From Sphagnum magellanicum (Eukaryota; Streptophyta; Sphagnopsida; Sphagnales; Sphagnaceae), in NCBI GenBank assembly GCA_021904315.1, contig CM038920.1, forward strand, positions 12,648,001-12,712,000: 64,000 nt of DNA, read 5' to 3'. A model generated the notes under the pieces. It saw nothing but the letters and a program-made list of their open reading frames with translations, searched no databases and was not told where the DNA came from. Both the position numbers and the translations under genes were made by a program. This document shows positions 4,931-48,017 of the stretch, in pieces (position 1 is the stretch's first letter; each line of letters begins with the position of its first letter).

Positions 4931-7900
4931 ATATTCAAAAAAAATTATGCAAAAATAGTTTATCACATTTGTTTAAATTAAAACATTATTATACGGCATG
5001 TGATAGGCGGTGAAATATCATCTTGTGTTGTACTAACCTTTTTTTCTTTATGTGTTTAGGTTCTGATCCATCCTACATGGGTTTACTAATGTTACCCCAA
5101 TTGATTAAAAAACTTGCCCTCCCCTTTATGTGGTGTGACAACTTGTAATCCACTGTTACACAATGTTAGACCATTGATTATACCCTTGTAAACCTTTAAC
5201 TCAATATGGCATGACGTGGAAATACTCATTAATTTAATGTTATAATAGTTACAGTGATTTACAACTTTGCAAATATCTTTTAAAAGGATTATAGATTTGG
5301 TTTGTTTCAAGTTATATCAAAACCCATATATTGGAACTTATGAAATTTATGTAATGTTATAATTTCATGTAGATTGGAATGAAAATTCTTTCATTTGAAA
5401 AGTTCATCTTGTTTTATGGAACAAAAATATGGGTTGAAATTTTGGAATAATCTAGTACAAATTTGAATTGGTTATTGTCAATTTGCCAAAAAGTTGTGAA
5501 TTGTCAATTTCATATTGATTTCATTTTACTAGTAAAAGGCCCCCCTTTTTTAAGTAAAAGTTTTCAACTAGATGTGATTTGCAACAATGTTGCAACTAGA
5601 TTTTTAAAAATTTAAAATAGAATAATGGCAATTACCAATTAAGTCAATTCATTAACTAAATTGGTATATAATTGAAAGTAATTTTCAACTAGGTGGTATT
5701 TTGTCGAATATTCCACTAAATAATACTAGCATCATCAATGTCTCCACGTTGAAATGTTACCATGTTGATAAATAGTGAAAAACAAGTCTTGACTAAAAGG
5801 TCATTATTGAAATATTCATAACATTTAAAGTTCTTTAGTTGGCACATAGTCAAGATATTAACTAATGTTCAACTATTTCGGTGACACCTTCAACACATGT
5901 ACAAATGATAAAATGTAATAAAAGGGATGGATGAAATGCAATCTCATTTTCAATTTTGTTGCAATTATCATTCAACTCGATTAAACAATTAATATATGAT
6001 TTTTTTATACATATGATAGATACATGTTAATATTTATGCTAAATTATGATAACATTAAATTACATGTAAAATTTATGAGTATAATTGAATGGTTGTGTGA
6101 TGTAATTTTTGTGATGCATATAATTATTTAATATAAATTAGTATTTTAATCTTATATATGTTCAAACATGTAATATTTGATTTTTATGTAGATTAAATTT
6201 AGATTACAACATATCAAATAATGATATATAATTAATGATTATATTGTGGAATTTTAATGTTTATTCATTTCTTCTTATGTGATAGCTTACTATTTATTAA
6301 AAATTATGATCAAAATTCATTAAACTAGAATCCCATGTAAATTCTATTTATAAATATAAAAGGTTATGTATGATGAATTTTTTTCCATTTAAATTATAAA
6401 TAAAATCTAAAAATAAAATTTAGTAAATTGAAATATAAGTTGGAAACAATGTGCATTAACATACAAGTTGACAGTAATATATTCAACACATGTAATGATA
6501 GCTTTTTTTATGTAATTAAAATTTTCATCTACAACAAAAATAATCAAACATAATTATGATTATTTGGAATTAATGTAATGATTAATTTAATTTTTTATTA
6601 ATGCAATGAAAAATTTATTTGAGATTAATCTAATAATTAATCTAATGTTAGTTATTGGTTTGAATATATCTAAAAATTATTTATTTCATTATCAATCTAT
6701 TTTATATTTAATATTAACAATAATTGGCATAATTAGTATGAACATTTAATAAATAACTATGTAATTTAGGAAAATATTTTTATTTTAGCAGTACAATATT
6801 TATCTCAATGTTTTTATTTTTATATTTTTATTCAATGTAGATTATATTAATTTTTACTAGTTATAACAAGTTAAATAATAGTACAAACTAAAATAGTTAA
6901 ATAATAACCTAATTCATATTATCTAAAGTAATATTAATAAATAATAACACTTTAATAAATGAAACATTAATATTTTATTATAATATTATAATTAATTATA
7001 TAACATGGAACTTCTTTTTTTGTTGAATATTTATTACATTTAATCAACATAATGAACCAAACCTAGGCTAGGTAAACTATTAGTTTAAGTTTAGGTTTAA
7101 TGAAATTAAAACTAGGTCTTAATTCAATTCGAGGTTGCAATTAATTAAATTGCAATTACATTACCACAAGATTACAACTAGTGTTGTGCAAGTATATAGA
7201 TTTACACATATTAGGCTAGTTTGGTATGTCTAGTATCATGGAAGGGGGGTATGAATATGGTCTGGGTATGTAATTAGAATGATTAAATTAGGTATAAATC
7301 TGATATTAAAACCTAAAATGTGAGACTAAGTATAAATTTGGTACTAATCTTATTTTTAAAAATTAATACTAGTGCATATCAACCTTGGTCTTGGTATGTT
7401 TTCATGATAGTCAAAAAAATTCCAAACCTTAAACAATGCCCCACAATGAACCAACAAAAACAAACAATGTTCCATAATGAACCAATAAATACAAAGAAAA
7501 TATAAACATTGGCACCAATTACACATTGAACCATGCATAAACACATTATATAAATGATTGAAAATTGAGATCATATTTGAAATCTAAAAAGTTTGAAGTT
7601 TAAAATGTTATAAATTTTTTTAGCATGTGAAATTTGAACACTACACAAAATTGATACAAATTGCAAAGTTAAAACTCAAAATGCAAATTGCAAAGACAAG
7701 TTATAATCAAATCCATGTCTAAGGGGAATATAATGTAGCAATTACAAATCCTCCTCAAGTAGCCATATTGGTCAAATTTTTTTCATGGGCTTTAAGAAGG
7801 TCTGTTTTAAAAGTTAAAAACTCCCCAACATCTTTTTTGCAAAGTGGCAACCAATTCGCACATCTTTTGCCTAGTTCTTGTATATCATGATGAAGGCATC

Positions 7901-9299
7901 CAAGTTTGTAAACCCAAATCTACAACAACACGGATTAGTCAAAATTATAACCATAGAGAATGTCCTCTCTGTTTCAATATATGAACTAGGAATTTGCCAA
8001 GGTTTGTTTATAGGCCACATTGGGATATAGCCTAGCATGTTCCCATGTATAAAATCATGTATAGAAATTTACATTTTTGTTTCAAGTTGAATTTTTGGTG
8101 TATTGTTGTTATGTGTATATATGATTGAAAATAAGTTTGCATATTCTAGTAAAGTTGTGTATGCACATTGCAACCACACATGATTTATTCTATTTTTCAA
8201 CAATAAGTTTGGAATTTGTGTGTCATAGTATGATTGAGATGTTTCAATGTCCAATATGAGTTCACATCAAAAAATGTTTTTTTCTTAGCCTTGTTGGTTT
8301 CTATTTGAAGCTAATCTAGAATTTAATTGAACATATTAAATAGTGATGTAGACATGGGATTACCTTATTGTGGCCATTTTTTGGAAAAAATATGTGAACA
8401 CATTTAATTAGAATGAACATCTGCTAGGGAATATTTGTGGATATTACATTCTTTCAAAACATGCATGGGAGCGAGTTCTAGAAACACATATAACTATGTG
8501 TACAAAATTTATTTTAAAAATGTCATGAAAATTATTTGGTGGTTTATATAGTACAATGTTTACCTTTTTTTGACATCCCCACCAATAACCAAGGCTACAA
8601 GTCAAAATGGTTGGTTCATGTTTATGATATTTCATTTGATATTGTCCATTTATAATTATAAACAAATCAATCTCATGGTGTTAATTAAATAACAACACAC
8701 ATGTATTATTCATTGATCATCCATGTTTTATTTACATTCATCCATTTAAAATTATTTTTTTTCATTTTAACTAATGTTTCCAAGCTCCATGTTCATGCAC
8801 AAGCCATCTTCCATAGCTCCCAAGGCCCTTCAAAGGTGGGAAACGTGGTCAAGTTAAGGTATTTACAATAGTTGAAAGTGAGGCTAAGTTGTTCTCCTTA
8901 CAACAACAAGCAAGGAAATTGACAATTCCATTTCACATTACCATTAATGCTAGATTCATTAGATGAATCCCAACTTAAGGATTGTAATGGTTCTTCTAGG
9001 ACTTATTGACCTTGTTGATCATGTTACAAGTCGATTAAAACTTTACTAATTTTCAACACAAATATATGTATTTTTCAAATCAAGCTTAAAATATTGGACC
9101 CTTGGATAGCCAAAAGCCATTATAAAACTCACCAATACATTTGCAAGATAGAGAATAAGAAGAATATCAATGAAAAAAAAATCCAAGCATAAGTGTTGGT
9201 AATTAAACTAAGGTGTTACGAACAATGAAGGGAAGAGACGAAAAAAGAAAAAGACATTAGTACAAAGGTGATGAATGAGGATTATATGTGGTGGGCTAT
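4931..9299. other. AT-rich intergenic DNA
   Basis: About 4.4 kb without a supportable gene. The part from about 5900 to 7060 is extremely AT-rich, with runs of ATTAAT-type words. The reading frames present are short, start in low-complexity sequence and match no family I know. No terminal repeats were recognised. Confidence 0.6.
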
Positions 9300-12200
9300 G
9301 GTTTTTCTTGTGGTTCCAACTCATACACAAAATGTAATTTTATACAATAAAATGGTTTTAAAATTTATTTTAAGGTGGGGTTACCTTTAGGGTGGTGGTT
9401 CTAGGTTGCCCCTTTAGGTTTTTTTTTGGGTGGGGTTGTTTAAAGTGGTGGGTTTTTAGGTTGCTTTTTTAAAAAATTATTTTAAGCTTGTGGGTTTGCC
9501 TAAGGTAGGTGGGCTTTTTGATGAGGGCCATATTTCTTTCAACTCTTGGGCTTCCACGTACCCATTTCTAGTTTGGGTGTGGTTTTTCAAGATTATGACC
9601 CATGTGGCCATTCCTTGTCCCTCAAATTAAAAATGGGGTTCAATGCAATGTCCCTTGTTTTAGTTATGACATTTTTTTAATAATAATGTGGCATGGTTTA
9701 TTACCAAAAACATTGTCAAACTTTTTAAACTTTGCATTCCAATAACATTTTTAACTCCTTGGTCACTGTTTTTGCCCTTTCTCCCTTTGCAGTAACTTGG
9801 GCTTGGATTTTGGCATTGGATCCTTTTAGTGCCTTCCATTTGGGTCTTCTTTGACCTCGTTTACACATACATTATTTTTTTTGCGTCAAAATGTGTAGGT
9901 TACCTTTTGTTTTTGTTCAGAGTAGCTTAGCTAAAATACATTTGATGTGGTTATTTGGTAACTATTGTTATTGTATCCTTAGTGATGTTTCATCCTTTCT
10001 CCTCAAGGTGGAGTGGTCATGCATGGGGAGATGAAGACACATCTTTGATGATTTTTATCCAAGGATTAGGAGGAATTTCAAACAAAACATTTTCTTTGGG
10101 TGTGTCGAAGATTTTGCATGTGTTACTAGGGCTTTTGCCCCTCTTGCGTTGGCTTTAATGTCATCAAAGATTATTTGCACATTATAAACCCTATGTATGT
10201 TTTAGATTCATATTCCCCTTACTCAAACTTCCTTGATGGATTTTCAACTAAACATAGATGTGGAAATCTCTTTAGATTCTTTTAGGTTAATTTTCTTGTG
10301 CATGTCCCATTGTTAGCAAGTGGTCCATTAAACATGGTTTTGGAACATTTTCAAAATTATTTTGACCTTAAGGATTCAATTGGTGGTTTCATTCAATTCC
10401 ATCAGTTGAGTTTTTATGTGGATATTGGCCACGTCCTATAGTCTATGACTTGCATTTTTAGTGCCATTATGCTTTTGACTTTGGCCCAACCTTTAGGTGG
10501 CATTTAGCTAAATGTAGTGGGCAAAGTGCTTAAGGTGACCCACTTGTTAAACCTTTTTTGGCGCTCATTTATTTTCATGTTTTGAATTGTTATTCAAGCA
10601 TTTTTTTCATGTTTCTTTCCTTCTTCGGCAGGTGATACCCATATCTTTGGCCTTACCCATGTTGTTCCTTTTGCCTTTGATCATTTTGCCTCTTAGTTGG
10701 CTTTTGTGTGGTTGGTTGTTTAGTTTTGCAAATGTTTGGTTTGGGCACCTTCAAGTTTGGTTCCTAGGTTTGCCCTCTCAATTCATTTCTATTACCTTAT
10801 TGATGGGATTGGGATTAAAGGTTTGGGTTCCTTTTTTATGTCCTTTTTGTAAAAGGCTTTGGATGAAGATGTTAAATTTGTCATGTTGATGTGCTCTTGA
10901 GGTTAGGGGATATGTAGGTAGCATTTGAGATCTGCTCTAAGTGTTTCGTTTATAGGCTTTCCTTTTTGCTCCATTTTTTTCCCCCTTTTTCAGTAGATCC
11001 AAATTTTTTTGTTGCTTGCCATTTAATTTTTGTGTTGACATTGTGATTTGGGTGGATGGTGTTTGAACGTTGGCTGATGTCATCATCATTAGCCCTATTT
11101 GAACATATTTGATTTTGTGAATAGCTAGTTATATTTTGTGGGGTTGTAGAATTATAGTTGTGATTTAGACTAAGGATGGCCTTTATCACAACTAGAATTC
11201 TACAAACATGTTTGCCTTTAGCCATAAAGGTTTTTGGGTGTTTACATTAGCATGTCAATGGTTTGATTCATTTGCTAACATGGTGTGGAAAAATGAAAGG
11301 TGTTGGATGCTTTCTTTTTTTGGTTTTGAGTTCATTTTACATGCAAAAGGTGTTGGTGGTGTTGCAACGAATGCACGCAACCTCTATTTCAAAACATGTT
11401 ATTATTGTAGGTGAAGGTTATTATGAGTTAATTGTTATTTTAGGTGTTCCTTGCCTCTCTTTATTTGATATGCTCTTCACGGCTACAAGGTTTGAATACT
11501 TGATTTGTTCATGTACCCTAGCGGTTTGCCCCATTTGGTGATTTCTTCGTTTGCCAGGACTTGGGTCCTTCCATCTTGCACCTTTTTCTTCCCCTTTTTT
11601 GGGGTGTTTTGTTTTGTTGTCGAATTGACAAGTTTTCATCAATAAGCAACATTTAAAGAAGCAAAGCCTTCATGTGTGTGGGTCCTATTTAATCTATTTG
11701 TAGCTTTCGGCTAGCATTACCAATGTTGGGTTGGCAATGGTTATTTTCATAGGCAATGAGTTACTGGACTTCTTGGACCAATTATTTATCAAGGCAGTTA
11801 AGGTATTTCTGAGAATTGGGTTGATATGTTATTGAGTCAATAATCCACAATGACTTTTCATGCTTTGTTTGGGGTATGTGTTAAATTAGCTATGAGTGTT
11901 TATTGCAGTCAATACAAGTTTGTTTTGTTAACTTATAATGGCTGGGGCCCACCCTTTCCATTTACCTTCTCCATCCTTGTTATCATCACATTTGACACAA
12001 GTAACCTATAACTATGTATGTTGACAACATGCCATCACCTTGTCATGCATGTTGATATCATACCATGGACCTGATTTCAACCTTTAGGTGTGTTTTTCTA
12101 GTTTTTGATTCCTCTTTTCTTATTTTGTTGCACCCTTTTTTTTCTATATAGTTGGATGGTGTTTATAATTTTAATTGTTGGAAACAAGTTGCATAAGAGC

Positions 12201-13470
12201 AAGTGCACAAACAAGTTTAGATTGCAATTAAAATAACATTTTTCAGACTCTGTTGGGTTGATAATGACTCGTGAAAAGGATTGTATGTTGGCATATAGAC
12301 AACTTTGAGAAATGGAGGGTAACATGGTAGCTTTTTTTCCTTTGGATTGTTGGCTTTGGTTTAAGGATATGAACAATGTGGGGGTTTTTTTTTGGCCACA
12401 ACCAGTGTTGTATCGATTTATTTTACATTCTAACTGATGGTGATGGCAATATCAAGATCACTTCTACTTTATTGCATTGCTGTGATTTGACAATGGAGGG
12501 GTTATCCAAGCTCTTGCCATGCCTCCCTATTTTGGAATTTGGTATTGTTGTGGTGACTTTAGTGTTTTTTAATTAGTGCAGTTCAAATCACGCTCTACCA
12601 AGAACGTCCAAAAGAGTTGCAGGTGTTCCTATCCTTTATTGAAATTGACAGTATTCATTTGTCTGTTTTGAACCCAAACTTAAGTGATGGCAGCAAATGA
12701 AATCTTGAGCTTGATATATGGAGAGTTTGTTGCCTAGATTCTTAGGTTTTGCTGAATTGATGATTGGCGACTTTGTCGGGTCCAACATTTCCTCCTCCCA
12801 CCATGATACTGAAAGACCGTCAATGAACAACTTCTATGTTGTTTCTTCATGATGGCTGAATTCATAACACTGAAGAACAGTTTCCAATCCCTAAATCCCC
12901 AAGTCGGTTAACGTGTAAATTTTCTCCTAGCCTTCAGTCATCCTCAATGAAAATCTGTGGAAATTTTTACTAGTGAGCGAAGTTCTTGTTGAAAATTTTG
13001 TTCAGGGATGCACTGTTGACTTCAACTTGAATCACTTGAGATCTTGAGTGATTATTATCAACACACAAAAGGTTGTGGAACCCTTTGAGATCTTTTTGGG
13101 TGCTGAAATGGTTGTTTTGTTGAAACTAAACTTGTGGGGAGGCGGGTTGTTGGCCTATGCCAAACAAACAATTTTGGAATTGTGGATACCCAAACAATTC
13201 AAGGCTTAAAAATTTCTAATTCTCATCACCCAACAAAAAGAAGCGAGTCTAGGCTACCTTTTGCCTAATTTTTGTGTTGGAAGATGTTTAACACTCACAT
13301 AAAAGAAAGATTGAAGCTCTTTTGGAGCAACATGAAAAATAAATCCAATCATTGATTAAGAAAATTACAGCCTTTCTTGAATCTTCACCATGAAAATGCT
13401 GGAGTAGGGAGTTTTTAAAAAAAATTCTAAAAAATAAAATAAAATTGCAAATAAATTCATTTCTCGCTTA
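9300..13470. other. T/G-rich stretch with no recognisable gene
   Basis: The + strand is rich in T and G (many 'ttttgggt' and 'ggttgcttt' words), so it yields spurious hydrophobic reading frames such as 10587-10889 (Leu/Phe-rich). Local composition differs from the flanking AT-rich DNA and might mark an old, decayed transposable element, but I found no conserved motif or terminal repeat. No exon of the downstream lipase gene was placed here. Confidence 0.5.
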
Positions 13471-13479
13471 GCATTTCTA

Positions 13480-14230
13480 GTTGATATGTACTTTGTACGA
13501 ACTTTCAGGTCTGCATCGTCTAACACGTGTCGCTTCAAGGCGCCATTGATCTTGGCGTCGACAGCCTTTAGGGTTTGTAGTTTGTACAACAACACTATCA
13601 TTTTGCGCGACGAGCGCTGGATCTTGGAGCAATTGCGATTGATGGTTGCAGCATTTAGTGTTCCGGGAAGAATTGAAGAAGAGTTTCCAATTGCGAAGAG
13701 AAGGAGAAGGAAGAGACAGTCTCGAAAAAAGAACTGGAGAATTTCTGTGGGTGTCTGTGGACGATTCTCTCAATGTTTTTTTTCCTGGAGACTTGGAAAC
13801 TGGAGGCGGTTGGTTTCATCGAGGTCTATTTCTCTTCTTTTTCAGAATCGTTGGTTTTGATTAGTTGTGAAGTACATAACAAGGAAGTGCTGATTGTGTA
13901 TTGTAACTATAATAGTAGTTTACCCTCAACCCTCCTTTCCGAGTCTTTTTTCTGCAAATCCCATAGCCTCCTTTTTTTTTCCTTCTTGGCCGCTTCTTAG
14001 CGAAGCCGATTTGGAGAAAAAGATCGAGGTGCTAGGTGGGTTAATGGAAGCTGGAAAGAGCGTTATGGCTATTGGAAAGTGTCAAACTCCGGCTCGTCTC
14101 CCTGATCGCCGTAATTGACTGAAATTGTGATCACGCAACGGTAATGTCTTGTGCAAGCATACATGTTAACATCTATTCGTGGCAGGAAACAGTGGATGTG
14201 AGGGAGTTAAGAATAAGAAGAATCAAGCAG
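13480..14230 (+). promoter_or_regulatory. Probable promoter and 5' UTR region of the lipase gene
   Basis: GC content rises and a pyrimidine-rich stretch (about 13920-13995) appears, as is common around plant transcription starts. The position of the start itself is not resolved. A likely spliced non-coding exon is 14186-14230, preceded by an acceptor 'ggcag' and followed by a donor 'gtattg'. Another possible donor, 'gtaatg', at 14141 would end a first exon. Overlapping reading frames occur on both strands here (for example 13486-13860 plus) but resemble no protein family, and none connects in frame to the lipase. Confidence 0.45.
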
Positions 14231-32145: not shown

Positions 32146-32148
32146 ATT
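32146..32148. repeat. Left target-site duplication (ATT)
   Basis: The three bases ATT directly precede the left CACTA terminus and are repeated directly after the right terminus at 40049-40051. A 3-bp duplication is the hallmark of CACTA (EnSpm/CMC) insertion. Confidence 0.85.
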
Positions 32149-32177
32149 CACTACTAGGAAAGTGTGGTGTAGTTCAC
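32149..32177 (+). repeat. CACTA left terminal inverted repeat
   Basis: Begins CACTACTAGGA and ends AGTTCAC. It pairs with the reverse complement of 40021-40048. The core CACTA plus the next six bases is identical at the two ends; mismatches and a one-base gap fall in the middle. Confidence 0.9.
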
Positions 32178-32310
32178 TACGCTATTTCACTATGCAACCA
32201 TAAAAGTGAATTAAGTTCACTGTAATTTCACTACCCTTACCTTCATTGGTGAAAATGGTTCACTATATGGTGTAAATGTTTACTAAGGGTGAAGTTTGTT
32301 TACTAGGTTT
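32173..32310 (+). repeat. CACTA left subterminal repeats
   Basis: At least five near copies of a 7-base word TTCACTA (also TTCACTG) occur within about 140 bases, on both strands. In CACTA elements such clusters bind the TNPA-type protein. The matching cluster is near the right end. Confidence 0.7.
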
Positions 32311-32865
32311 GTTTTTTTAACATTATTAAAATGATTATTGAAAAATCTTTAGTTAATTGGGTTCAGGGCATCAATAAATTACTTAGTTAAATGTGCATAT
32401 TTTATGTATATATTCCCATTTCAAGCATTGATCATGTGTTTGATGATTATTTCCACCTACATTTTTACTCTTGCTTTTGGGGGAGGGAAAAATTATGGAT
32501 GTGGTGGAAAAATAATGGCTTGACTTTCTTGTCCATGATATTATGGTAGCATGCAAAAGACAAAACCACTCATTCCCATGTGGGACACAATAAAATATGA
32601 AGCTTTTAAATCCTTAAGTTGTGAGATGTCCAACATATGCCAGGTCCACATTGAACTTTTGATGATGCACCAAATACATGTGTGAATGTGGACTAGCTAA
32701 GGCCATAGCCAAAATCACTACATGTTTGTTTTTCCTGCATAAACAGTAGGTTCAACATGGGTATTCAGTTGAGGTAAGTATTGTTGAGAGTCTAGATGCT
32801 GGCCATCATTTGTGAACATGCGAAACACAACATGCTTAGTGATTCTAACACAATAGGCCTCCTCG

Positions 32866-33040
32866 GGCCAGCAGCCCTTACATACATGTAGAATGGGCTT
32901 GGTAGGCCTAGCCCTTATGTACTGTGGAATAGGACTGGTTGGGCTAGCCCTTATGTACTATGGAGCAAGCTTCAGAGGGCCGAGCTTCATACTATGGAAC
33001 CAAGCCTCATAGAGCCAGCCCATATTTACTATGGAATGGG
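32866..33040 (+). repeat. Minisatellite, period about 36 bp
   Basis: About five imperfect units built around 'tagcccttatgtactatgga' can be followed from about 32870 to 33035, at spacings of roughly 34-38 bases. It sits inside the CACTA element between the left subterminal region and the kinase fragment. Internal minisatellites of this type are common in CACTA elements. Confidence 0.7.
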
Positions 33041-33431
33041 TATGCTTTGCAAAGCACTTGCATGATTGGCAAACCCATTAATGCTTCGATTCTCCTGTAG
33101 GAGGGGCATGGAATCTTTTTACTTCCAACAAGCTATAAGTTCTGCCCACTGAAATAAAGGCCCCAAAGGAACTCCAGGAAACAGAAAATAACACAATGAT
33201 ACTGGCAGAATTGACAAATATCCAACCACTTCAGTGCCTCAATTGGAGTTGGCATTTTCTTCTCACTGATTTTCTCATATTTCTACTTCTCAGTCCCTGC
33301 CTTTTTAACCTTTGCCAGGATAGACTGGCACAACCAACAACAGTAAAAGTGTTTCAAAGAAAACATCTATCATTGCAATAAAATCAACATCTTAGATGAA
33401 ATTAGAAGAAAAAAACTTGGAACACACTAAC

Positions 33432-34670
33432 CTGCCCCGCAAGTAGTACATGAGCACATAGCCCAGAGACTCCAAGTCATCCTTTCTGCTTTGTTCTGAG
33501 AAACATACAAGCATCCATTATGGATAAATTGAGGTGAAACTTGTCACAGAGAACATCATTCTCAATCATACAACAAGTTCCTCAAAGAAGACTATTATTC
33601 AACTAGAAAAAAAGAATATTTTGAACAAGTTCAACATGGTTCCAACTGACCAATCCCAAGTTGTGTATTAATGCTGGCATAGCGGACGGTTCCTGTTAAG
33701 TTCTTTTTCTCCTTGGAAACATGCAACTAAATTAATTTTAACCAACACACCAGGAATAGAAATAAGTATTGCCCAGGCTAAAGTTCAACCATAAATGTTA
33801 CATGTCAATGAACATAATGTGAACACACACATGCAGCAAAATCCATAGGCAAAAGCTGCCTATATCATCAGTGAGGTCATCAAACAAGTTCTACCAAATA
33901 GCAATTTGCAATTAACCCTGAAATAACCCTAACTTGTAAGGTATGTGTTGATGTGTTGTTGAATCACCATGCTTTTTGGCAAGACCAAAATCAATGACAT
34001 AAACCTGCAAAAAAACCAGTTCTCAGCAACTAACAGGAGTGCACCCACTCAGCTGCCCAGACGCCCATTCTAATACCAACTCAAAATATAAGACTGAATA
34101 TAACCGATGGACTGTGCTTTATTTGATACTTCAGCCAGTGCAACCTAATTTGCTCACCTCCCAAGCCCCATCAGGAAGTTATCAGGTTTGATATCTTAGT
34201 GAAGGAATCTTTTTGAGTGAACATACTCCACCCTATTGATCTGCAAGGGAAACATCACTTGAGGCCTACTATTTGCCAGTTCAGATGCTAAAATTTAACC
34301 CTCAAATTTCTCTACAAGCATTGGCATAAAATTTCAATAAAGGAAAGTTGCAACTTGATGCAGACCTAAGGAAATGCCAAACAATTTTCCGACAACAAGG
34401 CCACCAAAAATGTATAAAGGAACTAATCATCACAGGATTGAGATAGAAGTAAAGAGACTGCTGCAAATAACCTGCTAGTTGGTCTACCAACATGAGCATA
34501 GTTTTCAAGGATAATGTCCGATTGCAAAAGTTGAACAGATCTTCAAGACTTCACCCCAACAAATCAAGAACCAAAACATTGTAGTCCCCCTCTATCCCAA
34601 ACCACCTGATGTTTGGAATATCCCTGTTGGAGCATCACCACAATAGGATAGTCAAGACCAAATTTCTTGG
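33432..34670 (-). pseudogene. Casein kinase 1 fragment, introns retained, disabled
   Basis: Read on the minus strand, five exon remnants cover the middle of a CK1-type Ser/Thr kinase. 34470-34670 gives IPNIRWFGIEGDYNVLVLDL then, after a frameshift, SLEDLFNFCN. 34158-34240 gives the RVEYVHSK-to-DIKPDNFLMGLG catalytic loop. About 33940-34004 gives [20 protein letters not shown] (DFG). 33651-33711 gives NLTGTVRYASINTQLGIG. 33432-33495 gives [19 protein letters not shown]. Most exon edges still show AG and GT, so this is a genomic copy, not a retrocopy. It is disabled: the Arg codon of the HRD motif is a TAA stop (34196-34198), there is at least one frameshift near 34550, one codon (Phe of YFLRG) is missing, and the N-lobe start and the C-terminal half of the gene are absent. 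It lies wholly within the CACTA element, antisense to the other captured pieces. Confidence 0.88.
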
Positions 34671-35245
34671 TATAGTCACAAAATATCTATACAATTTCAG
34701 ATAAAATCCTAAAATAGTACTATAAAGCTAACCATTGCGTCAGTTCCAACCAAATCAAAACATACACAACAAGATGAGTGTAGTCATAACATTGTGAGTT
34801 TTACTGACAAAGTATCAACCATAATCTTTCATAAACCTAAACCCTGAACCCTAAACCCTAAACCTAAACCCTAAAACCTAAACCCTAAACCTGAAATTCA
34901 AGCATATTGAGCAATTGTGGTGCTAGATATTTGAGATCTTTCCTTCACATCCTAAAGCAATTGTGTGGCATTGCTTGCTAGCATTTTCAATTTGTGTGTT
35001 TGTGTGCCATTTGTGTTGTCCATGTTGCAACTATGAAGTCGGAGTAGGAGCATGAGTGAAGGAGTGAGCTTAATCAAGATCAAACAGTTGTTGAGCTTTT
35101 CAGGTGTGGAAATTTTGGTGAAGAAACAAAAAGAAGATGCCATGGAGGGAAGAGGAGGAGGAGCCACATGGATAGAGGAATGAGTGCTACTTGAGGAGGA
35201 CAGGGTTTGTAAGGAATTAAGAAAGCCATTTGAGCTGCCATGAAG
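34671..35245. other. Spacer between captured fragments
   Basis: Contains the telomere-like tract at 34833-34892 and otherwise no recognised coding sequence. The last 100 bases could include a degraded N-terminus of the PAT10-like copy (a frame reading DRVCKEL followed by a stop near 35233), but this is not secure. Confidence 0.4.
34833..34892 (-). repeat. Interstitial telomere-like tract (CCCTAAA)n
   Basis: About eight CCCTAAA / CCTAAA units, with variants such as CCCTGAA, occupy 60 bases. CCCTAAA is the complement of the plant telomere repeat TTTAGGG. It lies inside the CACTA element between the casein kinase and PAT10 fragments. Such short tracts can arise from repair of a double-strand break or act as telo-box promoter elements; the sequence does not decide between these. 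Confidence 0.9.
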
Positions 35246-35853
35246 CCAAATGAATGGCATCTGGGATGGGGGGTGAAGATAATGTGGGTGGTGGTGCATG
35301 TTGTGGGAGTGGGTGGCCTTCTTGTCCTTGACTCTGACCTATACCATCTGAGTGTTTCCTACTCATGGTGGGCAGCAGGCAGTACTACCTGCTGTTGTTG
35401 GCCACTGTGGTTCAGTATTATTGCACTGCAGGATCATCCCCTAGCTACTTAGCAGATTTGATAAATCAAGAGTATGACTTTGAAGCAAATGGAAGATTGG
35501 TGACAGATGATAGTGTAAGTGGGAAATTGGTTGCAGAAGCTAGGCAGAGTGTACAAGCATCTTCTGCAGATCCTGGTAGCAGTTGAGGGCTAGGTTGCTC
35601 CTCCTCCTCATCATCATCATCAAAAGGTGCAGGAACAAATGGTGATGGTTCACAAATTACACAAGCTAGTCCATTGCTTAGGAAGTCTTTTAATGTGAGG
35701 CGTGGGACTCCAAGTGTGTGTGATGGTCGACACTTGAGCAGGTCATTTGATATTCGCCATCCATCTGATGGCAGTACCATGCAGTGCCCATATTGCCATC
35801 TATGGCAGCCATTGAGGACTAAACACTGCCATGATTGTGACAAGTGTGTACTG
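35246..35853 (+). pseudogene. PAT10-like protein S-acyltransferase, N-terminal part
   Basis: This encodes the front half of a DHHC-family palmitoyltransferase that resembles plant PAT10. A membrane segment (IMWVVVHVVGVGGLLVLDSD) is followed, after a +1 frame change near 35340-35365, by QYYLLLLATVVQYYCTAGSS, a low-complexity Ser region, and the start of the Cys-rich domain (CPYCHLWQPLRTKHCHDCD). There are no introns across this span, which suggests a processed copy, although I do not know the exon map of the parent gene. Damage: the frameshift, and an in-frame TGA at 35584-35586 (possibly from CGA by CpG decay). Homology stops abruptly after 'CVL' at 35853, just before where QFDHHC should follow, because the amidohydrolase segment begins there. 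The remainder of the gene resumes at about 37525. Confidence 0.85.
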
Positions 35854-36011
35854 CGTTCCTGGTCCTATGGACGCGAAGATCCAGAGAAGAATATGCTGTG
35901 AACCTTGGACCTCGACACCCATTTGCACCTTCTTCCTCTCGACCTCGAGATCCACTTGCACCTTCTTCCTCTCAACCCATTTGCACAAAGAAGAAGAAGA
36001 AGACGAAGGCA
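35854..36011 (+). other. Leader of the captured amidohydrolase with a 33-bp tandem duplication
   Basis: Sequence between the PAT10 break and the amidohydrolase ATG. It holds two 33-base units in perfect register (35908-35940 and 35941-35973, starting 'gacctcga') plus a partial third, then a GAA-rich stretch. It is probably the parent gene's 5' UTR and was carried along with the coding exons. The PAT10 frame read through this point stops at 35899-35901. Confidence 0.5.
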
Positions 36012-37496
36012 ATGGAGAAGAAGGAGGATGAGGCGGTTTTGGAAGGCGAAGAAGCCGCTGAAGAAACAAGGCTGCTGCTACACAGTGCATGTATAGTGAC
36101 CATGGGTCCTGATGCCGCAGTTTACAAGGACGGAGCTCTGCTCATCACTGGTGGCAACATCACTGCAATCGGCAAAACGGAAGCGATGCTGGCGCAGTAT
36201 GGATCATCATCCCAAGTACATGATTTGTCAGGTCGCTGGATTCTACCTGGTAAAAAGCTTCAACACCCATCATCAAAATCCCATCACAAACTCTGCTCCT
36301 TTTTGTCTTGAAGCATCTCTGTTGAAGCATCAGCAAGCTTGAAGGAAGCTGAGAATTCTTAAGACACAAATCTGCTTCCATTCTTAAAGACCATCAGTCT
36401 AAAGCTTTTTTCAAATCTCTTCCCAGAGAAAGTGGCAGAGAATCAACCAGACAAGAGACCACAGGGATCCTGTCTGTGTGGAACTTTGAGTGATGATGCT
36501 GATGATGATGCCCAGTCTCTGATGATGAAGAAGTGCAAGAAGACCTCTTTCTGATTTTCAATTCTTGGGTTGCAAGAGAGACTTGGCAGGGTTGATCAAC
36601 ACACATGTGCATACTTCACAACAACTCGGCCGAGGGATTGCTGATGACGTTGACTTGCTCACCTGGTTGCATGGTCGCATCTGGCCATATGAGTCACACA
36701 TGACAGAGGAGGATTCCTATCTCTCCACATTACTCTGTGGCATTGAGCTTATCCACTCTGGGGTAGGCACCCCAACTCCACAGCTCTTATACATAGAGAG
36801 CATTTAGAATAAACATATTATTCCTTGAGCTCTGGCTGCATCAGATCTTTATCAAGGAATATGTGGAGCCATTGATGCAGCTAGTTTGTACAGGTGTTGG
36901 GATGTGGCAGAGCTTTCTTTTCATATGGTGTGTGGATGTTGTTGGGGTGGTGGTCAGGTGACATGTTTTGCAGAAGCAGGCGGACAACATGTACCAGGAA
37001 TGGCCCGTGCAGTTCAGAGACTTGGAATTCGTGCTTGTCTTGCACGCTCAACTATGGACAGTGGAGAAGGATTGCCTAAACTATGGGCTGCAGAGACCAC
37101 AGATTCCTATTTGCAGGTCAGAGATCTGTCATGGTTATTCCATGTTTGTAACATCCCATGATCCTTGCTTGGTTTACACTTTGTATGTCAATCGGTCAGG
37201 ATTTTAGTTAAAGATTGAATGGATACTCTTCATCATCTTGCTGGCATGATGATGATGTTTTGTTCCAGAAATCCCTTCATGAAAAATGAGTTGAGAATAT
37301 CAGGGCTTGCTTACTTGCTTGCTTGTGGTGGGATATGGATGTGCAGATTTAGGAAGATCTGTTTGAACAGTATCATGGAAGTGCTAGAGGTCGTATCAGA
37401 ATCTGGTATGGACTTCGCCAAATTCTGAATGTTTTAGACTCTCTGTTGCTCAGAACTAAAGCTGCAGCTGATAAGCATAAAACTGGTATCCACATG
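36012..37496 (+). pseudogene. ATZ/TRZ-type amidohydrolase, 5' half with introns
   Basis: Four exons encode 238 residues of an amidohydrolase in the ATZ/TRZ group (5-methylthioadenosine/S-adenosylhomocysteine deaminase-like or hydroxyatrazine ethylaminohydrolase-like; the substrate cannot be told). Exons: 36012-36249, 36590-36762, 36958-37116, 37353-37496. All are bounded by AG/GT and in consistent phase, with no stop or frameshift. The first metal-binding pair of the TIM-barrel is present in NTHVHTSQQ (His85, His87), followed by the family blocks DVDLLTWLHGRIWPYE and VTCFAEAGGQHVPGMARAV. The last exon ends at GIHM with a GT donor. The expected continuation (HVAE..., carrying the next metal ligand) and the whole C-terminal half are missing: about 28 bases into the intron the PAT10 copy resumes. 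Family members are usually about 450 residues, so this is a truncated capture and cannot be an active enzyme. Lack of internal damage suggests recent capture. Confidence 0.85.
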
Positions 37497-37524
37497 GTGA
37501 CTATCTTCCACCCCCACCTCTGCT

Positions 37525-37912
37525 GGTCATGTGGACCATAATTGTGTATTTTTCCGCCTTCAATAGAAGCAGTACAGGGAATTGGTTGTTGCAGGATTTA
37601 TTCGTGCTGATTATCATCATTGCTCTCACTACAACTGAAGCATTTCTGATTACCCTTCTTGCATTTCACAGCTACTTGATTATGACCAACCAGACAACAT
37701 ATGAGCTCACAAGACGGAAACGCATTCCATACCTCAAAGGTCTGCCAGACAAAGCGCATCCCTTCAGTAAAGGCCTTAAGGCTAATGTATACTCTTTCTG
37801 CTCAACATCAAGGTCTGAGTACCCAATATATGTGCTCCCAAGCCCTGAAGAGTTAGAGGCAAGGGCTCACTCATCATCATGCTTGGAGCGCCAATTCTGT
37901 AGCTGTTGCTAA
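37525..37912 (+). pseudogene. PAT10-like protein S-acyltransferase, C-terminal part
   Basis: Continuation of the copy that breaks at 35853. It starts at about residue WTIIVYF, then has a transmembrane helix (LFVLIIIIALTTTEAFLITL), the conserved cytosolic motif HSYLIMTNQTTYELTRRKR (the TTxE motif of DHHC enzymes) and the PAT10-type tail ending in a Cys pair and TAA at 37910-37912. It is uninterrupted over 387 bases with no intron. Compared with the family, about 31 residues between the two parts are gone, namely the DHHC catalytic motif and the following CIGxxNHxxF segment. The two parts are in the same orientation and order, which fits insertion of the amidohydrolase segment with loss of about 93 bases. 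Confidence 0.87.
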
Positions 37913-39700
37913 AATGCCACCTTCCTAAAAGGTTTGTAAGCAGGTAGCCCACTTGCAACCCCATGTCTCAGCCTTGTTAAGGGGGGGGGGGTGTTGGGCG
38001 AATAATATGTGTTGTTGAGTGAAGGTTTCACCCTTTTAAAAAAAGGGTTTCTTTGTTCATTTGGTTGTAATGCATATTTCTTTTTCTCCCCCAAGATGTC
38101 ACAAGATTAGATTTTCAGCTTGAGGATTGTGTTCCTTTTTGAGGGATTAGGGTTCCTGAAATGAAACAGTTGCCATAGCAGTTTCGCAAAATAAGGATTA
38201 GAGTCTGGGTAAGAGGTTCAGAGTATAGAGGTGCATAATATGAAGAGGGAATGCTAGATGCACCAATGCAGAAGTTTGCACATAGGTGCATGTTATTCTA
38301 AAGATATTTATGGATAACAAGAAAGTTTCTTTGTGTACATGCTGATGAGCATCAAGCCAAAAGCCTGAGTAGTAGTTGGGACCTATGGCAGCTTTGCAAG
38401 TGGGTATGGGTTCAATTCACCACTAAGCATCTATGAAGTCTGTGGTTGTGTTTGTTCTTAGTCCTTCCCTGTTCTTTTCCCTTTCTGTCTTTCTTTGTTT
38501 TTTTGTCTAGTCTTTGTTGTGGGGTCTTTTGCTAGCCAGTAGTATGGCTGAGTCTTCCCGTTGCTTCCGGAATTGCAGCAGAAACTCAGTTCACAGGATG
38601 GTGCTTGTCACCGGCCTTTACCCACTATACTGCACACACTATGGCACTAGAAAGCACATGAGGCAGACTATTGATGTGAGTTTACATGTTATTAATGTTT
38701 TGGCAGGTGGTGAGACCATTAACACAGACAACAACACACTTACAAGACAAGAAGATAGAGTTTCAGCAGCAAAATTGAGCCAACAAGATGGAAGGCAATT
38801 TATGGGTAATGGACAAAATATCTATTTGCCAGCAAAATCACCTTGTGAGAGTTCCTAAGCCAAGTCTTGAGAATTGTGTAGAAGATATTTGCCTAGTAGT
38901 GTAGATTGATATTGTGTTCAACATGCTAATTATTATTAAGAAAATTGACTGCCTAACTCTACACAACCCTGTTAAAAACCTGCTAGTACAAAATTGAAAA
39001 AACTTTGTTCACTAATTATAATCATGGTGATGCTCAATTGTTTGTTCAGATTTTTTTTAGTTTTTGCAAATGCATTCAATACACTTCATTGGTAATTTCA
39101 TGTTTTTATCTAGTCAGTTACAAGCATGTTATGGCATTGATTTTTTTCTGTTGAATGCTTGCAGTTCATGGTGGTTGGTGGTTTCCAAGCATCAAATGAG
39201 GGCATGATTGTGAGACTATATAGATCTCAAACATTAGTTTACCATTAGTATCGAACAAAATTTGACTTAGAAGACCCATTGGCACATTAAGACCCACTTT
39301 GGAATAAACCACTTAGATGTTGAAACAAGACAAATGTATGGAATTTGGCTTGGTGGGAACTATAATTTCAATTTCTATTAGCTTTTCTCTTATCCACCTA
39401 TCTTCTCACAATTATTGTGTTTCACCAAATTTGTTTCACTCAAATTGTCCATTGTCATAAATTTATTGATGTGGTGTGTCTAGGCAGTCTAGGGCAACAA
39501 AATGTCATCCAAAGGTACTATTGACTCTTCATTTGTATAAATTGCAAGCACACTAAAAGTTCAAACAAGGATCATCAAACCTTACAAGTTTCTATGCATG
39601 TTTCTATACTTGTCATCTTGAGTTCTTAGATGGACACATGGAAATTACAAGATGAAAATACTATGGAGTTAATTACCCATATTTAATGGTTAATAGATGG
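37913..39700. other. Unassigned interior of the CACTA element
   Basis: Starts with a poly-G run (about 37981-37991) and includes a modest + strand frame (38514-38858, 114 codons from a TTG) with no recognised domain. A GC-richer island at 38540-38680 looks exon-like (a VHRMVLVTGLYPLY-type segment) and may be one more captured fragment, but I cannot name it. No transposase motif was seen. Confidence 0.4.
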
Positions 39701-39706
39701 AAAAAT

Positions 39707-39825
39707 CTCCTTAAATTAACCAACCATAATTTGTGAAAAAATTCTCCTAAATTAACTAAACACAATATGAAAAAACAATTTAAATTAACTAACCACACTT
39801 GGTGAAAAAACCCTCTTAAATGACT
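39707..39825 (+). repeat. Minisatellite, period about 35 bp, near the CACTA right end
   Basis: Three and a half imperfect units based on 'ctcctaaattaactaacca' followed by 'gtgaaaaaa', starting at about 39707, 39744, 39778 and 39812. On the minus strand the units give a repeating LVNLxxFF pattern, which is only the shadow of the repeat. Confidence 0.7.
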
Positions 39826-39929
39826 AGTGTTGTAGGTTGATTTAACTAATAGGTGTAATTTCCAACGAAATTTGGGCATCACTTATTGTCATCTTGTTTC
39901 ACTAGCTTAATTGACCTGTCCTAGCAACT

Positions 39930-40020
39930 GGTCCCCGTTCACTACGGGGTTAACATGTTTTACCATGATTTCATATAGTGAATCTGTCCTAGTTCACTCA
40001 AAATCCTAGTGAAATACAAG
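39930..40020 (+). repeat. CACTA right subterminal repeats
   Basis: Several TTCACTA / TAGTGAA words (near 39938, 39976, 39993 and 40009) lie just inside the right terminus, mirroring the left cluster. Confidence 0.65.
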
Positions 40021-40048
40021 GTGAACTTGGCCACATCTCCTAGTAGTG
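40021..40048 (-). repeat. CACTA right terminal inverted repeat
   Basis: Ends TCCTAGTAGTG, the reverse complement of CACTACTAGGA, and starts GTGAACTTGG, which pairs with the inner part of the left terminus. Confidence 0.9.
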
Positions 40049-40051
40049 ATT
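40049..40051. repeat. Right target-site duplication (ATT)
   Basis: Identical to 32146-32148. Confidence 0.85.
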
Positions 40052-41875: not shown

Positions 41876-42480
41876 GTATACACATGTATTCTCTTAAGGT
41901 AATTAGATTTCAAAATTTGTGAAAATAACCTAAACCAAAACTAGAATGAACATTGCAAGTATACCCAAATATGATGAGACCCAAACTGGGTAATTGTATG
42001 TCAACATGTATGAAAGTAACCTAAACTAGAATTGAAATGAAAGTTTTAGGTATATCCAAAGATTATAATATTTCCATTAAGGTAATCAAACCTTAAAATG
42101 GTTCAAAATAATCTAAACCAAAATTGAAATTTGTAGGTTGTAGGTATATCCAAAGATGATCAGACTTTAATTAAAATAATTAGATGTCAAAATGTGTGAA
42201 AAGAACCTAAACCAAAACCAAAATGAAGGTTGCAAATATACCTAAAGATAATCAAACCCTAATTAGAATAATGAGATGTTAGTATTATAAAATAAACTTC
42301 AATTAGAACTAAAATGCAAGTTGCAAGTATACACAAAGATTTTCAAACCTTGATTATAGTAACTAGATGTCAAAATTGAAAAATCTGATTTGAACCAAAA
42401 TGAAATGAAAGTTGTAGGTATGCACAAAAAAAATCAAAGTATTCATTAGGGTAATTAGATGTGAAAATAAAAATTAACAT
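41876..42480 (+). repeat. Tandem array, period about 91 bp, 6-7 units
   Basis: The phrase 'aagttgtaggtata' followed by 'ccaaagat' recurs, with gtata-like anchors at 41876, 41959, 42050, 42144, 42236, 42327 and 42418, giving spacings of 83, 91, 94, 92, 91 and 91 bases. Each unit also holds 'taattagatgtcaaaat' and 'aacctaaaccaaaa'. Units are diverged, so the array is old. No coding potential. Confidence 0.85.
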
Positions 42481-46038: not shown

Positions 46039-46661
46039 TTGTGAACAGACCTCCAAGCTAAACACCACATAATTTCTGGGTGGTTAACTGAAGGTTCGGG
46101 GATGGCGAAACAGAGTAGGTAGATTAGCCAGGTTTAGCCAGCTTGCTGTGTTCAGGACATGGGTATGCTGTTTCTGCAAATTATGCAACCGGCTCTTCAC
46201 CAAACCCTAGAGCAGTGAAGGTTTTGCTGCGTCTTGCTGCTCTAAATGTAGAACATAGCTGCACAATTCCTGCTCCGACAGCAAGGACGACAGACGGAGT
46301 ATCAAACTGGTAACAACAGTGGCCTCCAACCTTGGCAACTGAAAGTTTCGTAGTTCTTCGCTTCTTTGCTCTCAGAGAGTGTTCAGAGAGCCAGCGCTGG
46401 ACTGTCCTTGAGACTCTGAATTCATTCTCGGTTCTTTGGTGCCACCAGGGGGGCCTTATATTATTATTAGTTTTTGAAGCCAAAGATGCAAAATAGTTGA
46501 AACTTCAGGATATCTTTGGCTGAGAAGCTTGGAGGGCACGAAGATGGCAGGGCCATAAGAAAGCTGGTTTTTGGGTGTTTTGTGGCGTAGGAATAGGGAA
46601 GAGGGCCAACCTGGCTTATACAGGCAGACCGGCTGGGCTGACGGGGGAGAATCTGGCAGTG
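46039..46661 (+). promoter_or_regulatory. Promoter and 5' UTR region of the trihelix gene
   Basis: GC-richer than the surroundings from about 46180. The transcription start is not fixed. A short upstream reading frame of four codons (MAGP, 46544-46558) lies about 100 bases before the main ATG and could lower translation. The minus-strand frames here (46181-46483 and 46456-46782) resemble no family and are treated as chance. Confidence 0.4.
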
Positions 46662-48017
46662 ATGGCAATGCTGCCAATGCAGACCTCACCGGATGTAGGA
46701 GGGGGCGACTTTGGGTCCATGACACTGGGCAGGAGAAGCAAGAAGGAGGAACGTATCCCGCAGTGGGGTTACCAAGAGACAAAGGAGTTCATTGCAGTAC
46801 GGGCAGAGCTGGAGAAGGATTTCAGTCAGACAAAGCGGAATAAGACGCTGTGGCAGCTCATTGCTGGAAAGATGAAGGAGAAAGGATTTCATAGGAGTGC
46901 AGATCAGTGCAAATGCAAATGGAAGAATCTTGTCAACCGCTACAAGGTAGGCGGTGTTTCTGTTTTGTTACTTGCTCAATCCAGAAGAAGCCTCGATTGC
47001 ATCTACAGTTTCCTGAATCCCTCATGCCCTCATTCTCTCCACAAAGTAAATGTATTTTGAGGGAATTGGAGAGTACAATGGCTCTAGCGCCCTAGCTTTT
47101 AAAATTTCAAAGGAAAATGTGCAACCAGGATGAGTTTTGTAGAGTCTTTGTGGGTGGCAGGATTCCAATCATTGCTCTTTGAAGGTTTTATTCATTACAG
47201 GTTTCAGACCTTAAGATTGTTTGCTTGAGCCTAGCTTAGTGCTCTATGCTTCCTTGATTTGATGGTTTGCTGATGCAAATGTATGCAGGGAAAGGAGACC
47301 TTTGAGCCTGATTATGAGGTCCATCTCATTTCCCTCCCTGTCTTCACTACACACCCTCAATGCTTTGTGATAGGTTAAATAGTGTTTCCATATTTGCATG
47401 TGAGTCTGCTTTTTCAATCTTCTGTATGCTTCGATGTGATTGCATGTCAATGGCTGCAGGGTAAGGAGACTAGTGAGCCTGACAATGGCAAGCAATGCCC
47501 TTTCTTTGAGGAGCTTGATGTGATCTTCAAAGAGCGTGCAAAGAGTATGGACAGGATGCTGCATGAGGTGGAAGCAGGGGCCAGACCTGGTAAGAAAGGG
47601 AAACGTGGGAGGAGGTCTTCAGATGAGGATAGTGATGATGTTGATGACGAGGATGATAGTGAGGATGACCGCATTGTTGGCAGGAAAGGCAGAAGATCAG
47701 AAAAGGGACAGAGAGTCACAGCTGAAAAGTTTCGGGCAAATAGCATGCAGGAAGTTCTAGAGGATTTTTTCCAGCAACAACAGCAGGCTGAGGTGCAATG
47801 GCATGATGCAGTGGAAAGAAGGGAGCAAGAATGGCGCATGCGGGAACAGGAGTGGAGAGATGCCATGGAAAAACTTGAGCAGGAGCGCATCACAAGAGAG
47901 CAAGGGTGGCGTGAGCGTGAGGAACAGAGACGTGCCAGAGAGGAAGTTCGGGCACAGAAAAGGGATGAGCTCTTTGCAGCCTTATTGAGCAAACTTGCTC
48001 AAGAAGATGATTATTGA
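46662..48017 (+). CDS. Trihelix transcription factor, GT-3a/GT-3b type
   Basis: A DNA-binding protein of the plant trihelix family, expected to act in the nucleus on GT elements. Exons 46662-46946 and 47460-48017 (GT-AG intron of 513 bp, phase 0) encode 280 residues. The trihelix domain spans about 31-95 with the three signature tryptophans Trp35, Trp64 and Trp87 and the GT-3-like block NKTLWQLIAGKMKEKGF, then QCKCKWKNLVNRYK at the exon end. Exon 2 opens with GKETSEPD and CPFFEELD, then a basic patch (GKKGKRGRR, about 139-147) that is a likely nuclear signal, then a run of Asp/Glu (150-165). A long Glu/Arg-rich coiled coil (about 190-275) carries the EWR/EQER repeats typical of the GT-3 C-terminus and ends in AALLSKLAQEDDY. 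The ATG at 46662 is the first in frame; the frame continues upstream only without an ATG. Length fits the family (about 270-320). Confidence 0.93.
47289..47318 (+). other. Possible alternative micro-exon in the trihelix intron
   Basis: Ten codons reading GKETFEPDYE, a near copy of the first eight residues of exon 2 (GKETSEPD), are preceded by an acceptor 'tatgcag' (ending 47288) and followed by a 'gt' (gtccat) at 47319. Thirty bases in phase 0 could be included between the two exons without shifting the frame. It is most likely a local duplication of the exon 2 start. Use in mRNA is not shown. Confidence 0.45.

What the first reader, a model, noticed from the sequence alone, without database searches (positions are those of the whole stretch)
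32149..40048. A complete gene-capturing CACTA transposon ('Pack-CACTA') with pieces of three host genes
Seen directly: inverted termini starting CACTACTAGGA, an exact ATT/ATT target duplication, and subterminal TTCACTA clusters at both ends. Inside are fragments of casein kinase 1 (minus), a PAT10-like acyltransferase (plus) and an ATZ/TRZ amidohydrolase (plus), and no transposase that I can see. CACTA elements in other plants are known to capture genes. The combination of intron-bearing pieces, an apparently intronless piece nested around another, and a telomere-like tract in one 7.9-kb unit is unusual, and I know of no description of this one.
Basis: partly seen in the sequence, partly recalled or inferred. 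Interest (0 to 1): 0.82.

Follow-up and report, generated by a model that had tools for sequence, protein, structure and literature searches.

The report
Peat-moss jumping gene carrying gene pieces
This is a cut-and-paste transposon of a peat moss that picked up broken pieces of three ordinary plant genes, one of them spliced inside another, and then spread as a package to 13 places in the genome, where some copies were mistaken for real genes.

Summary
Confirmed, with most of its history recovered. The 7,900-bp unit (32149-40048) is a non-autonomous, gene-carrying CACTA ("Pack-CACTA") element of Sphagnum divinum/magellanicum. Its genome holds 13 copies on 8 contigs, 1.0-2.7% diverged. All 12 copies with both ends have exact 3-bp target duplications; two insertion sites have an uninterrupted paralogue.

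Parents: PAT10 is an intact intronless gene on C3; the ATZ/TRZ amidohydrolase is a single-copy gene 1.8 Mb away. An 83-bp PAT10 stretch with the DHHC motif was exchanged for 1.66 kb of ATZ exons and introns. The CK1 piece is an older pseudogene, also carried by a 17.2-kb relative on C5 with a tnp2 transposase domain. Relative to that element, the unit lacks about 12 kb (telomere-like filler at the join) and has PAT10-ATZ-PAT10. Junctions J3-J6, the telomere-like tract and two coding lesions are in 13 of 13 copies, so it formed once and spread. Copies decay by CG/CHG-biased C-to-T change, without clear purifying selection. Three are annotated as host proteins. The kind is known; the nested capture and its record in a moss are new here.

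The parts
32146..32148 (.). target-site duplication, left (ATT)
   Evidence: 12 of 12 copies with both ends have matching triplets, 10 different ones
32149..32159 (+). left terminal inverted repeat CACTACTAGGA
   Evidence: same in 13 of 13 copies
32173..32265 (+). left subterminal TTCACTA cluster (4 copies in the first 200 bp)
32968..34842 (-). casein kinase 1 pseudogene piece, intron-bearing, four in-frame stops; older capture, shared with the 17.2-kb relative on C5 and with a pseudogene at C8:24.2 Mb
34843..34892 (.). telomere-like (CCCTAAA) filler at the join where the C5 element has 12.1 kb more; 3 to 8 repeat units among the 13 copies
34893..35041 (+). internal CACTA sequence, 95% to C5:17200129-17200277
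35042..35054 (.). 13-bp junction filler (J2; not compared among copies)
35055..35855 (+). PAT10, first part: upstream flank from 35055, ATG at 35240, codons 1-204; 2-bp insertion at 35381-35382 and TGA at 35584 (CGA in the parent)
35856..37517 (+). ATZ/TRZ amidohydrolase: upstream flank, exons 1-4 with introns, start of intron 4; replaces 83 bp of PAT10 that hold the DHHC motif
   Evidence: parent C3:6889500-6891168
37518..38459 (+). PAT10, second part: codons 233-362, stop at 37910-37912, then 3' flank
38452..38608 (+). CACTA-internal piece, 87% to C5:17197424-17197580 just behind the tnp2 domain (out of order relative to that element), joined to PAT10 through 3 bp of microhomology
38609..38616 (.). 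8-bp junction filler
38617..40048 (+). right end of the CACTA family, 96% to the C5 element; its last 1.2 kb is shared by many other places
38891..38901 (-). internal near-terminus CACTACTAGGC; also in the C5 element and in 6 of 7 right-end relatives looked at (the seventh, L042, was read on the wrong strand)
39898..40013 (.). right subterminal TTCACTA/TAGTGAA cluster (4 copies)
40038..40048 (-). right terminal inverted repeat
40049..40051 (.). target-site duplication, right (ATT)

Best explanation
A non-autonomous Pack-CACTA transposon. A CACTA lineage with a tnp2-type transposase had already taken in a CK1 pseudogene. One descendant lost much of its interior, transposase included (about 12 kb compared with the C5 relative), and the break was closed with telomere-like filler. 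About 780 bp further on were replaced by DNA copied from two genes of one chromosome: PAT10, then part of the ATZ/TRZ amidohydrolase gene, then PAT10 again 83 bp further on, followed by a 157-bp displaced piece of the element itself. I infer error-prone double-strand-break (gap) repair with template switching, from junctions of 0-3 bp microhomology or short filler. Shown: structure, parents of PAT10 and ATZ, junctions, 13 copies with target duplications, paralogous empty sites, decay pattern. Inferred: the repair mechanism, movement by transposase supplied in trans from relatives, and silencing by DNA methylation.
For: 13 copies, mean pairwise divergence 2.0%. ATZ-like coding DNA lies at 14 places in the genome, the C3 gene and the 13 copies, with 45 of 45 candidates scored. 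TSDs match in 12 of 12 copies with both ends; chance about 0.019 each. Paralogous empty sites with one ATT and one TGT. Intact intronless PAT10 parent. Frameshift, CGA-to-TGA/TAA change and junctions J3-J6 in 13 of 13 copies, telomere-like tract in 13 of 13. Same two ends on a 17,184-bp element with PF02992 (6.8e-33) and PF13960 (6.4e-28). Parent-to-copy divergence 2.4-2.5% against copy-to-copy 1.9-2.4% in the same stretches, so capture shortly preceded the burst. C-to-T at CG 4.1%, CHG 4.5%, CHH 0.8%, against 0.13% for A-to-G/T-to-C. Two sister pairs are neighbours on one contig: C19 0.59/0.85 Mb (1.00%, support 0.992) and C13 10.04/10.09 Mb (1.74%, support 0.996).
Against: No copy was seen to move. 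J4 is blunt and no PAT10-only or ATZ-only intermediate was found, so order and number of capture events are open. The C5 element is a relative (94.8-96.0% at the ends), not a proven progenitor; part of its extra 12 kb may be later insertions, and the 157-bp piece is out of order and only 87% alike. Other sister pairs lie on different contigs (C5/C12, C6/C20, C6/C16), and by raw distance C13:10.09 is nearer to C19:0.85 (1.62%), so local spread is only partly supported. Methylation is read from substitutions only; the majority base stood in for the ancestor. A PAT10 protein search of the genome did not complete, so PAT10-only relatives are excluded only by the DNA search, which scored 33 of 968 candidates.
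Confidence: 0.95

Rival explanations
1. Capture by the tandem-insertion model of Pack-CACTA: two neighbouring elements flanking host genes were mobilised together from their outer ends, and the inner ends were lost.
For: Published model for Arabidopsis and for Pack-TYPE elements (PMC8903248 section 9; PMC13317346 passages). Two neighbour pairs of copies exist. An internal near-terminus lies at 38891-38901. The 157-bp CACTA piece behind PAT10 is out of order relative to the C5 element, so not all CACTA parts are collinear with it.
Against: PAT10 and ATZ come from places 1.8 Mb apart, and one is nested in the other with an 83-bp exchange. The left 2,694 bases, the 149-bp piece and the right end are collinear with one 17.2-kb element. 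The internal near-terminus is also in the C5 element and in 6 of 7 relatives looked at. Junctions carry fillers and microhomology.
Confidence: 0.12
2. A functional chimeric gene: the ATZ insert acts as a ready-made intron, and the spliced PAT10 without its DHHC core is a used protein carried by the element.
For: Three copies are annotated as proteins whose models skip the frameshift, the stop and the insert. The GT/AG pairs for the small intron and for the insert are kept in 13 of 13 copies; a P0004-type spliced frame is open in 9 of 13, a P0002-type in 4 of 13. In PAT10 233-362 no nonsense change is seen where 2.6 are expected; 63 of 1000 simulations do as well.
Against: Substitutions otherwise fit neutrality: 46/26/7 nonsynonymous/synonymous/nonsense against 50.8/21.8/6.4 expected in PAT10 48-204, 37/20/0 against 32.1/22.3/2.6 in 233-362, 32/18/0 against 30.8/17.3/1.9 in ATZ exon 1. 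The catalytic DHHC is gone. The models use introns as short as 29 and 51 bp that only avoid lesions. CG/CHG C-to-T decay.
Confidence: 0.06
3. The PAT10 piece is a retroposed (processed) copy that fell into the element.
For: It has no introns.
Against: The parent gene is intronless, and the match runs from about 185 bp before the ATG to about 550 bp after the stop. ATZ keeps its introns.
Confidence: 0.02
4. A segmental duplication or assembly artefact rather than a transposon.
For: Several copies on one contig (C19 three, C13 three, C6 two).
Against: Exact element borders, TSDs of 10 different triplets in 12 copies, eight contigs, paralogous empty sites.
Confidence: 0.01

Closest known systems
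Pack-CACTA elements of Arabidopsis, maize and rice (Pack-TYPE transposons; passages and section 9 of PMC8903248)
   Same: CACTA ends, TSDs, no transposase, sometimes fragments of several host loci, sometimes annotated as genes, local neighbour copies
   Different: Moss host; captured gene nested in another captured gene; transposase-bearing relative that carries the oldest captured piece; junctions that point to filler repair rather than fusion of neighbours
Tgm-Express1 of soybean (abstract of PMC1947982)
   Same: CACTA element of similar size (5.7 kb) made of several host gene fragments (five) kept as exons and introns
   Different: Tgm-Express1 sits in intron 2 of a flower-colour gene and its chimeric transcripts were shown; here 13 copies, two parents and the junctions are known, and transcripts are untested
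En/Spm-type autonomous CACTA elements (family name recalled; tnp2 domain tested)
   Same: C5:17185303-17202486 has CACTACTAGGA ends, TSD TCC, Transposase_21 and DUF4218
   Different: Its tnp2 frame has two stops; whether any relative is active is unknown

Membership tests
CACTA (En/Spm) superfamily | terminal inverted repeats beginning CACTA | tested here: met
   13 of 13 copies begin CACTACTAGGAA; 11 end CCTAGTAGTG, C12 ends CCTAATAGTG, one lacks the right end
CACTA (En/Spm) superfamily | 3-bp target-site duplication | tested here: met
   12 of 12 copies with both ends
CACTA (En/Spm) superfamily | subterminal short repeats in both orientations | tested here: met
   TTCACTA/TAGTGAA 8 of 24 in the two outer 200-bp ends of the window copy; not counted in other copies
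CACTA (En/Spm) superfamily | related element with tnp2-type transposase and the same ends | tested here: met
   C5 element, PF02992 and PF13960; its tnp2 frame is broken
CACTA (En/Spm) superfamily | excision or reinsertion observed | not testable with these tools
   needs plants or several accessions
Pack-CACTA (Pack-TYPE) | no transposase inside | tested here: met
   (listed rows)
Pack-CACTA (Pack-TYPE) | fragments of host genes whose parents exist elsewhere | tested here: met
   PAT10 and ATZ parents on C3; CK1 genes elsewhere, but the direct CK1 source is unsettled
Pack-CACTA (Pack-TYPE) | present as more than one copy | tested here: met
   13 copies
Pack-CACTA (Pack-TYPE) | capture by fusion of neighbouring insertions (published model) | tested here: inconclusive
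   junctions argue against it for PAT10/ATZ, but no native-locus intermediate was seen either way
processed pseudogene / retrocopy | loss of parental introns | tested here: not met
   PAT10 parent has none to lose; ATZ keeps its introns

The most novel reading that the evidence does not exclude
The PAT10-ATZ-PAT10 sandwich is the track of one repair event in which the copying strand left PAT10 through 2 bp of homology, copied 1.66 kb of a gene 1.8 Mb away on the same chromosome, and returned to PAT10 83 bp downstream in the same direction, then switched to a stray piece of the element. CACTA gap repair would then build gene-in-gene chimeras in a single step by microhomology template switching, an alternative to the fusion model for Pack-CACTA capture.
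Probability: 0.35. Interest if true: 0.62.

Novelty: new member of a known kind. Interest (0 to 1): 0.5.

Why it matters
It gives a nearly complete record, from parent genes through junctions to a 13-copy burst, of how a CACTA transposon takes in host genes, in a moss lineage for which I found no description of such elements in the searches made. It bears directly on an open question, whether capture comes from fusion of neighbouring elements or from template-switching repair. It also indicates that at least three annotated S. magellanicum proteins (CY35_19G003600, CY35_19G004300, CY35_06G052600) are transposon pieces. Since CACTA is the most abundant classified repeat type in the published Sphagnum genomes (6.8%; passages of PMC9946827), many similar elements may sit unnoticed in their gene lists.

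Tried and rejected
Retroposition of PAT10: rejected, parent intronless. Fusion relic at 38891-38901: rejected, present in the C5 element and in 6 of 7 relatives looked at. C8:24.2 Mb as working CK1 parent: rejected, it shares stops and the rearranged exon order with the C5 element; CK1 genes without stops in their best exons lie elsewhere, e.g. C5:8.45 Mb and C8:14.85 Mb. Selection on the chimeric frame: not clearly supported. The ATZ splice-site rows used wrong offsets and are not used; splice sites were read. The P0003-type splice model could not be reproduced from the window copy. The 7 viral-contig matches to the terminus pattern were not pursued, as about this many are expected by chance from my own rough estimate; a viral-contig search with PAT10 found no relative. 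ORF 38511-38855 has no Pfam match and is unexplained. Of the loci fetched by place, only the C5 copy (L049) was looked at.
Full report
WHERE IT IS. The window is C14:12648001-12712000 of a 438,994,042-base assembly in 31 contigs. Among the closest PAT10 proteins are three Sphagnum magellanicum CY35 gene models. The length of C6 (26,086,143) equals that of the contig of one of them; C19 (17,457,500) is within 3 kb of that of the other two (17,460,353). The published S. divinum assembly, reclassified within the S. magellanicum complex, is 439 Mb (passages of PMC9946827). I take it to be that genome or a close version of it.

THE UNIT. Exact 11-bp inverted termini, ATT/ATT flanks and subterminal TTCACTA clusters are present and far beyond chance. 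Searched whole against its genome, the unit gives 11 full or nearly full-length places plus two copies reported in two pieces: 13 copies on C5, C6 (2), C12, C13 (3), C14, C16, C19 (3) and C20, eight contigs (33 of 968 candidates scored). An independent protein search with the amidohydrolase, in which 45 of 45 candidates were scored, finds the same 13 plus the parent gene on C3 and nothing else. Every copy with both ends has a perfect 3-bp duplication: ATT, TTT, TTT, AAC, GAA, AAT, TGT, CCA, ATA, GTT, ATT, GAT, i.e. 12 of 12; the 13th (C13:4.86 Mb) lacks its last 40 bp. The joined flanks of 12 copies were compared with the window and the 51 loci held: three alignments span a join, two of them clean. 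The window site has an uninterrupted paralogue in L041 (75%) with one ATT, and the C13:10.04-Mb site one in L028 (76%) with one TGT; the third (L031, 66%) is too diverged to read.

THE CAPTURED PIECES. PAT10: the parent on C3 (within 5093300-5095700) is an intact, intronless frame of about 362 codons. The unit matches it at 97.6% and 97.0% from about 185 bp before the ATG to about 550 bp after the stop, except for 83 bp that encode FDHHC and the following residues. ATZ/TRZ: 1.66 kb of C3:6889500-6891168 at 97.8%, with exons 1-4 and their introns, stands in place of those 83 bp. CK1: intron-bearing, with four in-frame stops. It matches C8:24217399-24219193 at 91.7%, but that locus shares stops and a rearranged exon order with the C5 element, so it is a pseudogene relative, not the working parent. 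Other CK1 genes exist in the genome.

THE RELATIVE WITH A TRANSPOSASE. C5:17185303-17202486 (17,184 bp, TSD TCC/TCC) has the same ends and, in the same order, the window unit's left 2,694 bases (with CK1), its 149-bp internal piece and its right end. Between them lie tnp2 (PF02992, 6.8e-33) and DUF4218 (6.4e-28); its tnp2 frame has two stops. A fourth shared piece of 157 bp (87%) lies in the unit behind PAT10 but in C5 just behind tnp2, so it is out of order. A tnp2 domain without stops (532-residue open frame) lies about 5.4 kb inside a matching right end on C14 near 2.70 Mb; I did not read that element. The genome has at least 152 PF02992 matches.

JUNCTIONS. J1: 50 bp of telomere-like repeat where the C5 element has 12.1 kb more; the tract is in 13 of 13 copies with 3 to 8 units. 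J2: 13-bp filler (not compared among copies). J3 PAT10 to ATZ: 2 bp shared. J4 ATZ to PAT10: blunt. J5 PAT10 to CACTA: 3 bp shared. J6: 8-bp filler. J3 to J6 were checked by aligned columns and occur in 13 of 13 copies, with single-base variants; so do the 2-bp insertion and the CGA-to-TGA/TAA change in PAT10. So the composite formed once. Similar parent-to-copy (2.4-2.5%) and copy-to-copy divergence (1.9-2.4%) in the captured stretches, and a star-like tree, put the capture shortly before the burst. I infer repair with template switching; the data do not prove one event rather than two.

FATE. Of 890 substitutions in columns with at least 11 of 13 copies agreeing, 637 are C-to-T or G-to-A, at 4.1% of CG, 4.5% of CHG and 0.8% of CHH sites, against 0.13% for the reverse transitions: the mark of cytosine methylation, as expected of a silenced transposon (inference; no methylation data seen). 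Amino-acid changes fit neutral expectation in three stretches, apart from a weak lack of nonsense changes in one (0 against 2.6; 63 of 1000 simulations). Three copies are annotated as proteins: CY35_19G004300 best matches L019 (99.1%), CY35_19G003600 L023 (93.6%), CY35_06G052600 L021 (91.2%). The models of CY35_19G003600 and CY35_19G004300 are reproduced from the window copy by splicing out the frameshift, the stop region and the ATZ insert (96.6% and 97.3% identity); the third was not reproduced.

KNOWN OR NEW. Pack-CACTA elements with several host loci are known in flowering plants (PMC8903248 passages and section 9; soybean Tgm-Express1, abstract). My searches for Pack-CACTA (18 papers, 17 listed), Sphagnum with CACTA (2 papers), moss with CACTA and gene capture (1 paper), CACTA with captured host gene fragments or transduplication (16 papers), Pack-MULE with Physcomitrella (8 papers) and bryophyte with CACTA and gene fragments (76 papers, 10 listed) listed no paper whose title or abstract start describes a gene-carrying CACTA of a moss. 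The two Pack-TYPE papers searched inside do not mention mosses. The library is limited to open licences. I therefore call it a new member of a known kind.

Noticed in passing
C19:590888-598778, C19:853753-861609, C6:8480545-8488445 (L023, L019, L021): Three copies of the transposon appear in public databases as host proteins (CY35_19G003600, CY35_19G004300, CY35_06G052600).
   Followed up: yes
C20:2115874-2124594 (L027, L030): A copy on C20 (4.7 Mb, by number and small size probably the sex chromosome described in PMC9946827) carries an 817-bp nested insertion in the first ATZ intron, bordered by a 7-bp repeat TCACAAA.
   Followed up: partly
C6:18294376-18294446 and C20:2121673-2121743: A 71-bp stretch (unit positions 2862-2932) matches in inverted orientation in these two copies, which are sisters in the tree.
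   Followed up: no
window 38511-38855: An open frame of 115 codons near the right end has no Pfam match; it overlaps the CACTA-derived pieces and is unexplained.
   Followed up: partly
C14:2.57-2.74 Mb: A cluster of related CACTA ends, CK1 pseudogene pieces and tnp2 domains lies here; it may be a nest of the parent family.
   Followed up: no
window 5714-13660: A second CACTA/TAGTG pair with TTC/TTC flanks and 8 exact terminal bases; shuffles give 0.44 such listed pairs on average, so probably chance.
   Followed up: partly
window 41900-42468: Degenerate tandem array of about 91-bp units, 6 copies.
   Followed up: no
window 96-888 against 3140-3940: Inverted repeat of about 800 bp at 74% identity.
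   Followed up: no
window 46533-48017: A gene with a Myb/SANT-like (trihelix-type, name recalled) domain, PF13837 at 1.4e-18.
   Followed up: no
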